A stretch of DNA of 64,000 nucleotides from Chitinivibrionales bacterium. Lineage in GTDB: Bacteria > Fibrobacterota > Chitinivibrionia > Chitinivibrionales > WJKA01. The notes under the pieces are model-generated. The model had not been told where the DNA came from. It was given only the letters and a program-made list of their open reading frames with translations, and made no database searches. The stretch spans positions 1 through 64,000 of the forward strand of contig WJLW01000130.1 in the NCBI GenBank assembly GCA_014728295.1. Direction: 5' to 3'. Position numbers and translations under genes: made by a program. Each line of letters starts with the position of its first letter. Positions within the stretch are counted from its first letter, which is position 1. Of this stretch, positions 13,377 through 21,616 are shown in pieces.

Positions 13377-15095
13377 CTAAAAGCCGAACCCGAATTGGAC
13401 CACGATTTCGTGCCCCATTACCCGGTAAGGAAGGCAGACGTGGACATAGCAGGCGCGTGCGCTGTCCTGAGCGGGATGCGGCCCAACACTGACCCCGACG
13501 GCATCAGGCGGTTTGGTGTCCATATCCGCGGCAATACGCTTGAGAATAGTCGCATAAATCAATTGCTGAAGCTGATCGTCGGGAAGCTTGCGTTTGGATT
13601 CGGCAATAGCCAGTGCCAGCCTGCTGAGGTAGCCGCCAATGACGGCACGTGGAATCGAGGCGCCATCCAATTTGCACGTTTTTGAGGCCGCCAGTACAAT
13701 TTCATCCAAATCCGGTTCGCCATAGAGCGGGGCCAAACCGGCATCGATCATTTCATGCACAAGCCCCTGCTGCCAGATATCGGCAAGCGGCGAGGCTACA
13801 GTTTTCGAATCGAGCTGCAGTCCGGACGGCGCCGGCAGATCTGCCACGCAGGCCTTGTCACCACTATCGTAAACGCGATCCGTTCCCAGCCTCCCGAGAT
13901 TTTCACTCAACATGAGTCCCGCCGCTACCGCTCCGGATGCACAGGGCAGTCGATCCCGGTCGGTCGATTCGTTATAGGCAATTGAGCTGATTCGAGCTGT
14001 CCGGCCTGAAAAAGGAAGACGCAGAGCAAATGCCCCTGCAACCAGTGCTAGCCAATCGGCTTCTTCCCGGGCAATGAAGTCGCGCCAGTGCACATAGCTT
14101 TGACGCTGCACCAGCGTCTGCACACTGCCCACGTTCGAGGCAATTTGTCGCCAGTGCTGAACGCCAAAAAATGCGGGAGCACACGCGCAGAGCATCAGCG
14201 TCTGAGTGCTCTGCCCCAACTTCGCAAGGTCTGCAATCAACTCCAGGTCCACAGCGGAAGCGGATAGCGGAAAAGAAAGGATAACCGCATCGGGAGCGGG
14301 CATACCTTCGCTCCAGGCAGGTTTGAACACATGCTGCACCAACAGATCGCGCAACGCCTCACGGCTACCGGCGAGCACCCGAACTTCCACACCGCGCTTA
14401 AAATCGGTACGCTCGACCAGCAGGGCAACCTCCCGCCAGACACGCTCGAGTTCAACAAACCCCGATTCATGCACAATCGCATCCAATTGACGACTTGCAA
14501 CTGCATCGATTTTTGAAAAAAGCTGCGCAACATCACCGGAAGCCGGCACCTTGGGCGCATCGCTTGCCGCTTTCGCCAGCGCCTCGACCGGGGATGATTC
14601 GGCTGGTGGCGTCGGTTCGGCATCATCCAACCCCATCATGCCGAGAATGTCGTCAACAGCGCAACTCGATCTGGACGCGTCGGTGCGCCCCGTCCCCAGC
14701 AATGAGCCGCAGGCTGCTCTGATTCGCGGGGGAAGGGTGAGCCCGGTAATTTTTCGGGCACATTCGTCGCGGGTGATCTTTGCCTTGTGAAATTTATCGA
14801 GTACTTCTTTCACCTCGACAAGCGCCCTGAGTTCGAGTACCTGCCGCATGAGACCATCCGGCTCGAAATCTTTGAGTTGGGTGAACAAAAGCTCAACATC
14901 AAGATTCGGCGCCGGCGTGCCCAGCTCGTTTTTGACCGGGATTGCAAGGGTCGGCTTGAGTGCCTTGAAAAGATCATTCAGACTGTATTTGTCAACCGAT
15001 TGCGCGGCGCCCCCACTCTTTCCGCCACAGAGATCGGCGACATAAACGATTTGCCATTTGGGCAATTTTGGCAGCACATGGCTGGTTGTCTCCAT
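13377..15095 (-). CDS. TssB-TssC fusion-like protein (orphan contractile sheath protein)
   Basis: 572-residue protein that reads as a fusion of the two T6SS sheath subunits. Residues ~10-110 match TssB/VipA: IVYVADLCGGKSG, then LDVELLFTQLKDFEPDGLM and QVLELRALVEVKEVLDKF. A Pro/Ala/Ser linker (~140-190) follows. Residues ~190-572 match TssC/VipB: IDAVASRQLDAIVHESGF then LERVWREVALLVERTDFK, LIADLAKLGQSTQTL, APAFFGVQHW, WRDFIAREEADWLALVAG, and the last strands CYVHVCLPYRVMGHEIVVQF. Canonical systems use two genes with an adjacent hcp, baseplate and ClpV; none is found here. A TTG at 15098 precedes the ATG at 15095, and GGGAGG lies just upstream. It forms a likely operon with the MFS gene. Assembly into a sheath is inferred. 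Confidence 0.75.
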   Translation of the reverse strand: METTSHVLPKLPKWQIVYVADLCGGKSGGAAQSVDKYSLNDLFKALKPTLAIPVKNELGTPAPNLDVELLFTQLKDFEPDGLMRQVLELRALVEVKEVLDKFHKAKITRDECARKITGLTLPPRIRAACGSLLGTGRTDASRSSCAVDDILGMMGLDDAEPTPPAESSPVEALAKAASDAPKVPASGDVAQLFSKIDAVASRQLDAIVHESGFVELERVWREVALLVERTDFKRGVEVRVLAGSREALRDLLVQHVFKPAWSEGMPAPDAVILSFPLSASAVDLELIADLAKLGQSTQTLMLCACAPAFFGVQHWRQIASNVGSVQTLVQRQSYVHWRDFIAREEADWLALVAGAFALRLPFSGRTARISSIAYNESTDRDRLPCASGAVAAGLMLSENLGRLGTDRVYDSGDKACVADLPAPSGLQLDSKTVASPLADIWQQGLVHEMIDAGLAPLYGEPDLDEIVLAASKTCKLDGASIPRAVIGGYLSRLALAIAESKRKLPDDQLQQLIYATILKRIAADMDTKPPDAVGVSVGPHPAQDSARACYVHVCLPYRVMGHEIVVQFGFGF

Positions 15096-15313
15096 CAATC
15101 CTCCCGGCTAATAATCTGTAATTACGATCCATGACAAAATAACATTAACGAAGCATTCTCCAACACTTTTAGATTCGTCTGCTGCGTTCATGCCCTTATC
15201 TCTTCTATTCTAATCGGCATTCGGACAACTGCATCATACCAGCTTTCATGCTCGCTTCGTGAAGCCTGCTTTGATGCAATTGTCGGGAACTATCAAGCAG
15301 TGGAGACCTTCTC

Positions 15314-16788
15314 ATGAAGATCACTTTTTGCGGCGGCGCACGTGAGGTTGGTGCAACCTGTTATCTCCTGCATATTGACAATCGCAAGCTTCTCATTGAT
15401 TGCTGCATTCGGATGAAAACAGGCAAGGATACCCTGCCGGCCTTTCCCGTGTACGTTGACGGAATGGTGCAATATATCAATCAGGTCTACAATGGGAATC
15501 CCAATTACTTGCGCGAAGCACTTTCCACAAAGATATTCCGCAATATTGACATATTCTATGACGACAATGTCAAACGCGTCCTGGACCGGGCGATGCGCGA
15601 AACGATAGTGCGCAGTAGCGAGTCGCTATGCGTCGTTGCCAGTTCGGGGATGCTGGCCGGCGGCCCAAGTGCATATTATGCCGAACAGTTTGCCGCAGAC
15701 AAGACCAATTACATTGCCATTACCGGCTATCAGGATGAAAAAGCCCCGACGCGCTCTATTCGATCGAGGAGCTGTCAATCGCGTGGAATGGCATCGAATC
15801 CATCAAGCAGGCCGAAGTGAGCAAGGTGCATGATATCGCCAACCAAAGCCCGTGGTTTGTTCTCGACAAGCGCAAGCTGTTTCTCTATCGCCCGGCAAAG
15901 AAGGAAGAGCTCGCCCGCAAAGATGACGGTACAATGGAGCTCAACGAGATGTTTGCGCTGGTTGGTAAATTGCTGCCTTCCGCTACCGGACTCTACAAAC
16001 GCGGTGCGAGAATCGAAGAGAAGAAATGCATACTTAATTTTAATTTCCCTCATGCAGCCTGAAGAAACTATGCCGCCATTATTGACAAATTGACATCTGA
16101 GACCGGATGGACATTCGAAATCAAGATGGAATGCAATATCACCGCCGGGCACGAATTAATCCACGAGCTATTGCCTGAAAATGAAGGAATCAACAAAGTT
16201 TCGTATTTCAGGGACGCCGGACAATTTTCGATCAGAATGGAAAACGACATTGCAGGCACGGAGTGCTTTGAAGAAAAATTTGCCAAAGCAACGGGTTTGA
16301 CGCTCAAAATTACACAGCCTTCCCAAGCGCATGAAAAAAAAGCGAAACCGCAGCTTTGCGACAAACCTGAAGGCATGCTCGAGCAGAATAAAGCGATGGC
16401 CCGTATTGAATGCGCATTCGGCACAACACCTCACTCGCTTTACAAAATGAGCCGAAAAATTTCCGACGGCATTCCCTATATCGAGTTGACCTTCATCTCT
16501 CCCGCCATTGGTGAGCTCTATTGCGGTCTGATCGAAGCGCTTGAACAAGAGACCGGCTGGCATATCCTGATTTCCTCGCGCGTCAACCAAACGGCAATGA
16601 TTCAGAAGGCAAAAGCGATCTGCAAGCGCAGCGGCATAGATATTGCCGGAAATCCCAGCATTTTTACCTCCGAAAATATTATCCGCATAAAAGCGTGTAC
16701 CGCAGTTGCGGATGGATTGAAAGCGGCGACAGCACAACGCGTCAGGGAAACAACGGGGTATGATGCTGAAATTATTGGCAATGCCTGA
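15314..16788 (+). pseudogene. decayed beta-CASP metallo-beta-lactamase RNase-like gene
   Basis: The frame starts as a MBL-fold nuclease (MKITFCGGAREVGATCYLL, LLIDCCIRMKTGKDTLP) but jumps directly to the beta-CASP part (AFPVYVDGMV, then SSGMLAGGPSAYYAEQF and ITGYQDE). The segment that should hold the HxHxDH zinc motif, several hundred bases, is absent. After ITGYQDE the frame shifts (around 15740-15790) and continues as ESIKQAEVSKVHDIANQS. An in-frame TGA at 16060-16062 then interrupts it, and the same frame goes on to 16788 as a C-terminal nucleic-acid-binding-like region. Three independent lesions make this a pseudogene. Read as separate genes, the pieces would be 15314-15820, 15817-16062 and 16090-16788. 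The ATG at 15314 follows AGTGGAGACC. Confidence 0.8.
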
Positions 16789-20617: not shown

Positions 20618-21616
20618 ATGGCTGATGATACTAAAAAAGTCACCGATCCTGAAACAGATCTCTTTGATGCACTTGATACCATCAAAACGATTGTTCTCGG
20701 AGACGAATTCGAAGAGATAGCCAATACCATTTCGGAACAGGAAACATCGCTTATTGGAAGGATCAAAGATCTGAAGAGCGATTTGCAAAAGGAGATCAGC
20801 CTCAGAGTGGGTGATGTGAAAAAGGAGTTGGATGCTGCAACAGCAGCCATGAAAAAGGATCTCACCGCCGGATTGGACGAATTGCGCAAGAGCCTGGATA
20901 CATCGGTCGCCGACATCAAAAAAAATATTGGAGCCGACATCGATTCGGTAAAAAACATCGTCGCTTCCGAGGTAGGCGATGCCAGAAAAAGTGTCGATGC
21001 CGTCAAGGAAAGCACCGACAAGGCAGTCACCAATCTGGAAAACAGATTTGCCAAGTCCATTTCTGAAGTCAATGATACAATGCGCAACAGGCAAGAGGAT
21101 ATTACCCAAAGGCTTGAGGCGCAGAAGACGGATATTACCAAATCAATCAATTCCATGAAAAGCGAGATCGACGGCAATATTACCGGAATAAGCCGTCAGT
21201 TATCGGTACATTCGGCAGATCTTGAACAGCGCGCCAAGGAAAGCAAGCGCATTTCGAGCCTGTTATCGAACTTTGGTAAAATGTTTGCAGCCGACAGCGA
21301 AGAAGCCAGCGTACTGCAAGGCCAGCCGGTTCCGAAACAAAGCGGACCATCAACCACTCCCGTTCCACCGCCTCCTCCCCCGCCCAGGGCTGCTCCTCAG
21401 CCACCGGAAGCCAAAAAGCCTGTGCCGCCACCGCCTCAGCAGAAAAAACCGACGCCACCCAATCCACAACAGTCTGCAAAGGCAGCCAAAAATAACGATG
21501 AATTCGAAGTTCCCTCGCCCAAAAAAAAGCAGCCACCGCAGGATCCCAATTCCAATTTGCCGGGCGGTGGCGATATCATGGACAGTATCGACAACATGTT
21601 TAATCTCGAAAAGTAA
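20618..21616 (+). CDS. coiled-coil protein with polyproline C-terminal region
   Basis: 332-residue cytoplasmic protein. Residues ~40-225 are a long, highly charged helix with heptad/11-mer spacing (KSDLQKEISLRVGDVKKEL, then repeated D.KK and EV..AR.S motifs), predicted to form a coiled coil. Residues ~240-295 are proline-rich with runs such as TPVPPPPPPPRAAP, a typical ligand or spacer. The short tail ends DIMDSIDNMFNLEK, which could be a helix that binds a partner. No enzyme motif is present; a scaffold or cytoskeletal role is a guess from shape. It has a strong AAGGAGGG site and is followed by a good terminator, so it is probably monocistronic. Confidence 0.75.
   Translation: MADDTKKVTDPETDLFDALDTIKTIVLGDEFEEIANTISEQETSLIGRIKDLKSDLQKEISLRVGDVKKELDAATAAMKKDLTAGLDELRKSLDTSVADIKKNIGADIDSVKNIVASEVGDARKSVDAVKESTDKAVTNLENRFAKSISEVNDTMRNRQEDITQRLEAQKTDITKSINSMKSEIDGNITGISRQLSVHSADLEQRAKESKRISSLLSNFGKMFAADSEEASVLQGQPVPKQSGPSTTPVPPPPPPPRAAPQPPEAKKPVPPPPQQKKPTPPNPQQSAKAAKNNDEFEVPSPKKKQPPQDPNSNLPGGGDIMDSIDNMFNLEK

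What the first reader, a model, noticed from the sequence alone, without database searches (positions are those of the whole stretch)
13377..15095. Orphan TssB-TssC fusion: a one-gene contractile sheath?
One 572-residue frame carries both sheath subunits. The TssB pattern (LDVELLFTQLKDFEPDGLM, QVLELRALVEVKEVL) is followed, after a Pro/Ser linker, by the TssC pattern (QLDAIVHESGF, LERVWREVALLVERTDFK, WRDFIAREEADWLALVAG and the final strand CYVHVCLPYRVMGHEIVVQF). Known T6SS encode them as separate genes with hcp, baseplate and ClpV nearby; none is here. The C-terminal strand needed for sheath interlocking is kept, so a sheath, a closed particle or an evolved non-contractile scaffold are all possible. 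An MFS transporter is probably coupled to it.
Basis: partly seen in the sequence, partly recalled or inferred. Interest (0 to 1): 0.78.

Follow-up and report, generated by a model that had tools for sequence, protein, structure and literature searches.

The report
Single-chain TssB-TssC sheath relative
A bacterium of the Fibrobacterota carries, besides its ordinary type VI secretion 'spear gun', an extra gene in which the two building blocks of the contracting sheath are joined into one fast-evolving protein; it has lost parts needed to build a normal sheath but keeps a handle for the recycling motor, so it looks like a new accessory part of the machine rather than a second sheath.

Summary
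In detail: one 572-residue gene (minus strand, 13377-15095) joins a TssB-like and a TssC-like sheath domain. Pfam, profile-to-PDB and AlphaFold/Foldseek all point to T6SS sheath. It is not an orphan: the same genome has a T6SS with separate tssA-B-C-hcp, tssE-F-G-clpV and tssK-L-M on other contigs. Nor is it a decayed copy: full-length fusions occur in 15 of 40 genomes of the order (Chitinivibrionales), all T6SS-positive, dN/dS about 0.2. Half of them sit in the kinase/FHA operon that elsewhere flanks tssA. A bulk sheath is unlikely: the window protein has no room for the TssB donor strand, the conserved TssC inner-domain block is gone, and it evolves far faster than the separate TssC. Its most conserved spot is a D-x-I-L-x-M motif in a disordered linker, at the place of the TssC ClpV-docking helix (LLDEII); the separate TssC of this order lacks it, and the fusion largely tracks ClpV. 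Best reading: a sheath-derived accessory acting with ClpV on the normal sheath. Biochemistry is untested.

The parts
13377..15095 (-). fused TssB-TssC gene, 572 aa, ATG start, TAG stop
   Evidence: RBS GGGAGG 15105-15100, in-frame stop 15108-15110
14772..15002 (-). TssB/VipA-like domain core (Pfam PF05591 profile positions 53-129 of 155; the N-terminal part that holds the donor strand is missing)
   Evidence: strand/helix core predicted at residues 14-133
14547..14690 (-). low-confidence (disordered) linker, residues 136-183
   Evidence: pLDDT about 30-37
14637..14657 (-). VDDILGM motif (residues 147-153): D-x-I-[LM]-x-M, with D, I and M invariant in 15/15 fused proteins; aligns with the TssC/VipB N-terminal ClpV-docking helix
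13674..14522 (-). TssC/VipB-like domain (PF05943)
   Evidence: Foldseek to 3j9g, 5urx, 5n8n
13383..13499 (-). C-terminal strands equivalent to TssC beta11-beta13 (handshake acceptors and donor)
   Evidence: model strands 533-539, 547-559, 562-571; role from PMC5807055
12181..13365 (-). MFS transporter gene 11 bp downstream; conserved next to the fusion only in the same family (G001, G002)

Best explanation
[quoted passage not shown] Shown: fold, fusion, conservation, company of a T6SS with separate TssB/TssC, association of one half of the family with the T6SS-flanking kinase operon. Inferred: it does not build the long sheath but binds canonical TssB/TssC (through its TssC-type C-terminal strand and/or its middle domain) as a minor subunit, at an end of the sheath or on freed sheath subunits, and offers ClpV an LLDEII-type docking motif in its flexible linker, so helping to start, place or time ClpV-driven sheath recycling. 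In effect it would do with a sheath relative what TagJ/HsiE is proposed to do in the H1-T6SS of Pseudomonas.
For: T6SS link: all 15 fusion-bearing genomes have TssC and TssF; 10 of 40 genomes have neither T6SS nor fusion. In 8 of 8 clade-B genomes the gene lies directly upstream of the CHASE2-kinase operon, mostly with LysM-FecR, FHA-SLT and radical-SAM genes; the same operon lies divergent to tssA in G000, and FHA-SLT is beside tssA in G022, G025, G029, G037. ClpV link: motif h-D-x-I-[LIM] in 15/15 fusions at the profile-aligned position of VipB LDEIM and Myxococcus TssC LLDEIL, invariant inside an otherwise variable, disordered linker; the 16 separate TssC N-termini of the order that were read have G-L-x-Y-I-Y instead. 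ClpV of these genomes has the uncharged V. cholerae-type groove (Ile6, Leu10, Ser/Ala/Thr86, Phe87 in 8 of 8), the type that goes with LLDEII (PMC4239648). ClpV is present in 14/15 fusion genomes vs 2/15 T6SS+ genomes without fusion (Fisher 2e-5; genus level 0.0004-0.0025). G029 lacks ClpV from an otherwise intact tssABC-hcp-EFG-M operon and lacks the fusion, though nested among genomes that have both. Not bulk sheath: no TssB donor strand possible in 6 of 7 clade-A genes read to the upstream stop, inner block lost, fast evolution.
Against: The ClpV correlation rests on few independent events: two clean joint absences (G029; the G019/G032 + g5/g10 clade) against three exceptions (G004 fusion without ClpV; G007 and, by a fragment, G035 ClpV without fusion). 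The G-L-x-Y-I-Y helix of the separate TssC may itself bind ClpV (EAEC TssC1 binds without LLDEII, PMC5048182), and it is kept in ClpV-less genomes. No interaction was modelled or measured. In clade A the gene is not near T6SS genes. Clade B keeps an N-terminal S-x-I-x-S-x-x-V-S-L-G segment that may be a donor strand.
Confidence: 0.42

Rival explanations
1. Sheath cap or adaptor: the fusion forms one ring (distal end or baseplate side) of the canonical sheath; unable to give a TssB strand to its neighbour, it ends or starts polymerisation. The ClpV motif is incidental.
For: Clade A keeps the TssC C-terminal donor strand but has no TssB donor strand; V. cholerae sheaths have a distinct distal-end complex of unclear protein composition, and VipA-N3 sheaths are joined to the previous ring through the VipB linker only (PMC5813253).
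Against: Clade B seems to keep the TssB strand. Inner-domain residues shared by separate TssCs are lost. T6SS+ relatives without it exist.
Confidence: 0.2
2. Soluble regulator or decoy: it titrates ClpV or free TssB/TssC, under control of the linked CHASE2 kinase/FHA module, and so restrains firing or recycling.
For: Linked kinase, FHA and FecR genes in clade B; loss of polymer contacts; fast evolution.
Against: No direct evidence of regulation; clade A is not linked to the kinase operon.
Confidence: 0.2
3. Second, independent one-gene contractile sheath or closed particle.
For: Both domains and the C-terminal strands are there; phage and eCIS sheaths are single chains.
Against: No hcp or baseplate gene beside it; TssB donor strand absent, inner-domain block absent, best structural match to T6SS rather than single-chain sheaths.
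Confidence: 0.07
4. Decayed duplicate, or recruited to an unrelated role (for example with the MFS transporter).
For: Gene is remote from the T6SS in clade A; low identity between relatives.
Against: Intact in 15 genomes, dN/dS about 0.2 in clade B, invariant motif, always with a T6SS. MFS only in one family.
Confidence: 0.08

Closest known systems
TssB/VipA + TssC/VipB sheath heterodimer (PDB 3j9g, 5urw, 5n8n)
   Same: Both domains, fold, C-terminal strands, position of the ClpV-docking helix
   Different: One chain; no TssB N-terminal donor strand in clade A; conserved TssC inner-domain block lost; far faster divergence; below both NCBIfam equivalog cut-offs
TssC40/TssC41 of Agrobacterium (two non-redundant TssC homologues, PMC3702570)
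   Same: A second TssC-like protein beside the working sheath pair, not redundant with it
   Different: TssC40 is a separate TssC homologue inside the T6SS cluster, not a TssB-TssC fusion
TagJ/HsiE (PMC4239648)
   Same: Proposed way of working: an accessory that touches both the sheath and ClpV
   Different: Different protein family; PF07024 not found in the fusion; TagJ goes with charged-groove ClpV, while these ClpVs have the uncharged groove
Single-chain sheaths of phages and eCIS (gp18, Afp/Pvc, Streptomyces CIS)
   Same: One polypeptide per protomer
   Different: Weaker structural match (E 5e-6 or worse vs 8e-21); part of complete particles with their own tube and baseplate genes

Membership tests
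TssC/VipB (PF05943, TIGR03355) | Pfam domain above curated cut-off | tested here: met
   104 bits vs 27
TssC/VipB (PF05943, TIGR03355) | NCBIfam equivalog cut-off (functional TssC) | tested here: not met
   98.5 vs 271.5 bits; the genome's separate TssC scores 670.9
TssC/VipB (PF05943, TIGR03355) | Conserved inner-domain block (AN..L.Y..R.AHY.KV..R..G) | tested here: not met
   Conserved in separate TssCs, absent in the aligned clade-A fusions; R-I-[AS]-H-Y in 0 of 15 fusions, 17 of 26 TssCs
TssC/VipB (PF05943, TIGR03355) | C-terminal handshake strands beta11-13 | tested here: met
   Predicted at 533-571; prediction only
TssC/VipB (PF05943, TIGR03355) | N-terminal ClpV-docking helix, LLDEII type | tested here: met
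   Sequence only: motif in 15/15, profile-aligned to 5mxn and 5urw; binding not tested
TssB/VipA (PF05591, TIGR03358) | Pfam domain above curated cut-off | tested here: met
   53.4 bits vs 24
TssB/VipA (PF05591, TIGR03358) | NCBIfam equivalog cut-off | tested here: not met
   52.4 vs 97.25 bits
TssB/VipA (PF05591, TIGR03358) | N-terminal donor strand beta1 for the handshake | tested here: not met
   Only 13 residues before the first core strand and a stop codon 5 codons upstream; clade B may keep it
T6SS contractile sheath | Polymerises around Hcp and contracts | not testable with these tools
   Needs purification and electron microscopy
T6SS (whole system) | Core tss genes in the same genome | tested here: met
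   TssA,B,C,Hcp on C46; TssE,F,G,ClpV on C128; TssK,L,M on C83
TagJ/HsiE (ImpE) | PF07024 domain | tested here: not met
   Not among the Pfam hits of the fusion
Phage/eCIS single-chain sheath | Closest structural match to single-chain sheaths | tested here: not met
   The top nine Foldseek hits are T6SS chains

The most novel reading that the evidence does not exclude
A new T6SS component: a sheath-derived, single-chain ClpV adaptor or cap that carries the LLDEII-type docking motif which the main sheath of these bacteria lacks, so that sheath recycling is started from special subunits rather than from every sheath subunit.
Probability: 0.3. Interest if true: 0.78.

Novelty: new variant of a known kind. 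Interest (0 to 1): 0.6.

Why it matters
The make-up of the sheath's distal end (reported as unclear in PMC5813253) and the way ClpV is brought to the sheath in different T6SS classes (PMC4239648) are open questions. A natural TssB-TssC fusion, kept beside the normal pair across an order, gives a candidate dedicated subunit and a set of natural gains and losses of ClpV against which to test it. It also shows that the two-gene T6SS sheath unit can be turned back into one chain, as in phage tails.

Tried and rejected
Decayed duplicate: rejected by conservation and dN/dS. Independent contractile system: no dedicated partners found. MFS coupling: only in one family. First genome-contig scan with the single protein found nothing; an alignment of all members had no block conserved enough; the second scan gave three Chitinivibrionales/Fibrobacterota relatives and one Salinivenus record that proved to be an ordinary TssC with a separate TssB. 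Plasmid tblastn gave no fused gene among the hits listed; the annotated top hits are adjacent, separate tssB and tssC. A search in Bacteroidota could not be centred. The apparent fusions in G156, G159, G045 and G049 contain in-frame stops, that is, they are adjacent separate genes. Literature searches for natural TssB-TssC fusions found none (open-licence papers only; one further query was malformed). The Pfam TagJ search of the order (0 of 40) is weak because no control genome rang. Single origin of clades A and B is not excluded but not proven: long branches.

Full report
Observation. The frame is real and lies on the minus strand (13377-15095). Pfam finds T6SS_VipA (E 3.4e-14) followed by VipB (E 9.5e-30), both over their curated cut-offs. 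A profile of 13 relatives finds only T6SS sheath chains (TssC/VipB and TssB/VipA types) among solved structures, at best 1e-45 and 4e-16. AlphaFold gives pLDDT 82, and Foldseek puts nine T6SS sheath chains first. This is far beyond chance.

Not an orphan. The genome (Fibrobacterota; relatives by record title Chitinivibrionales) has separate tssA, tssB, tssC and hcp at the end of contig C46, tssE, tssF, tssG and clpV on C128, and tssK, tssL, tssM on C83. Its separate TssC scores 670.9 bits on TIGR03355, the fusion 98.5.

A conserved family. Searching 40 genomes of the order gives 15 full-length one-frame fusions. All 15 genomes also have TssC and TssF; ten genomes have none of the three. In 168 genomes of the phylum no further fusion was found; four apparent ones contain stops between adjacent tssB and tssC. 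The fusions form two groups, A (7, with the window) and B (8), each a clade and apart from the separate TssCs; branches are long. Same-genome comparison: A pairs are 28-34% identical (one pair 47%), while their separate TssCs are 75-89%; B pairs are 25-32% vs 72-89%. dN/dS in a near B pair (83% identity) is about 0.22. So the gene is under selection but much less constrained than a sheath subunit.

Neighbours. In all eight B genomes the fusion lies just upstream of the CHASE2 Ser/Thr kinase operon, in most with LysM-FecR, FHA-transglycosylase and radical-SAM genes (in L031, L034 and L086 part of the set is missing or cut). In G000 this very operon lies divergent to tssA on C46; the FHA-transglycosylase gene is also beside tssA in G022, G025, G029 and G037. 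In clade A the neighbours differ: MFS in G000, G001, G002; hisD in G003 and G009, with a CsgG-like gene.

Anatomy against sheath function. In sheaths, two TssC strands receive one strand from a neighbouring TssC C-terminus and one from a neighbouring TssB N-terminus (PMC5807055); the length of the VipA N-terminal linker controls contraction (PMC5797969). The window protein has 13 residues before its first core strand and an in-frame stop 5 codons upstream, so no TssB donor strand is possible; upstream reading in the other A genes gives the same picture except G022, where the upstream frame is open but an ATG lies at the same place. B proteins have about 25 more residues with S-x-I-x-S-x-x-V-S-L-G, a possible donor strand (inference). 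The C-terminal strands are kept. The block AN..L.Y..R.AHY.KV..R..G, shared by separate TssCs in the inner domain, is gone.

ClpV. In V. cholerae ClpV docks on the TssC N-terminal helix LLDEIM; TssCs with this motif go with ClpVs of uncharged groove, and systems without it tend to have TagJ (PMC4239648). The fusion linker is predicted disordered (pLDDT about 30), varies in length, yet D, I and M of D-x-I-[LM]-x-M are invariant in all 15, and HMMER aligns it to LDEIM of VipB and LLDEIL of Myxococcus TssC. The regular form h-D-x-I-[LIM] is in 15/15 fusions and in none of the 16 separate TssC N-termini of the main T6SS type of the order, which read G-L-x-Y-I-Y with few variants. ClpV groove residues in eight genomes are of the uncharged type. 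ClpV (TIGR03345 over cut-off, or fragments that score higher on ClpV than ClpB) is in 14/15 fusion genomes and 2/15 T6SS genomes without fusion. Relatedness inflates the p-value: on the TssC tree there are two clean joint absences (G029; G019/G032 with genera g5 and g10) and three exceptions (G004, G007, G035). This is suggestive, not proof.

Mechanism. I take it as an accessory of the T6SS, binding the normal sheath or its freed subunits and offering a ClpV docking motif (confidence 0.42). Cap/adaptor, decoy/regulator, relic and independent sheath are rivals. None of the interactions is shown.

Novelty. No report of a natural TssB-TssC fusion was found in the papers available, which exclude most subscription journals; fusions outside Fibrobacterota were hardly tested. 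It is a new variant of a known kind: homologous to both sheath proteins, yet a member of neither functional family by the curated equivalog cut-offs.

Noticed in passing
L092 (G029:C35); also G005, G012, G015, G017, G019, G023, G024, G032, G033, G034, G036, G038 and G004: T6SS gene sets without a recognisable ClpV, in G029 with tssG followed directly by tssM; the Clp ATPases checked in five of these genomes are ClpB. How these sheaths are recycled is unclear.
   Followed up: partly
L023:6004-12282 and L032:2071-8245: A conserved LysM-FecR / CHASE2-Ser/Thr kinase / FHA-lytic transglycosylase / radical-SAM operon beside the T6SS genes (or the fusion) in Chitinivibrionales; candidate signalling module for T6SS firing.
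   Followed up: partly
window 15314-15820 (+): Beta-CASP protein gene whose translation seems to jump from a metallo-beta-lactamase-like N-terminus straight to the beta-CASP domain, as if the metal-binding middle were deleted.
   Followed up: no
L037, L038, L039 (G012, G026, G037): A second, different T6SS type with TssC of about 495 aa and 42% identity to the main TssC, beside the main one in G026 and G037.
   Followed up: no
window 20618-21616 (+): 332-aa protein: long coiled coil (apolipoprotein-like, below Pfam cut-off) followed by a proline-rich tail.
   Followed up: no
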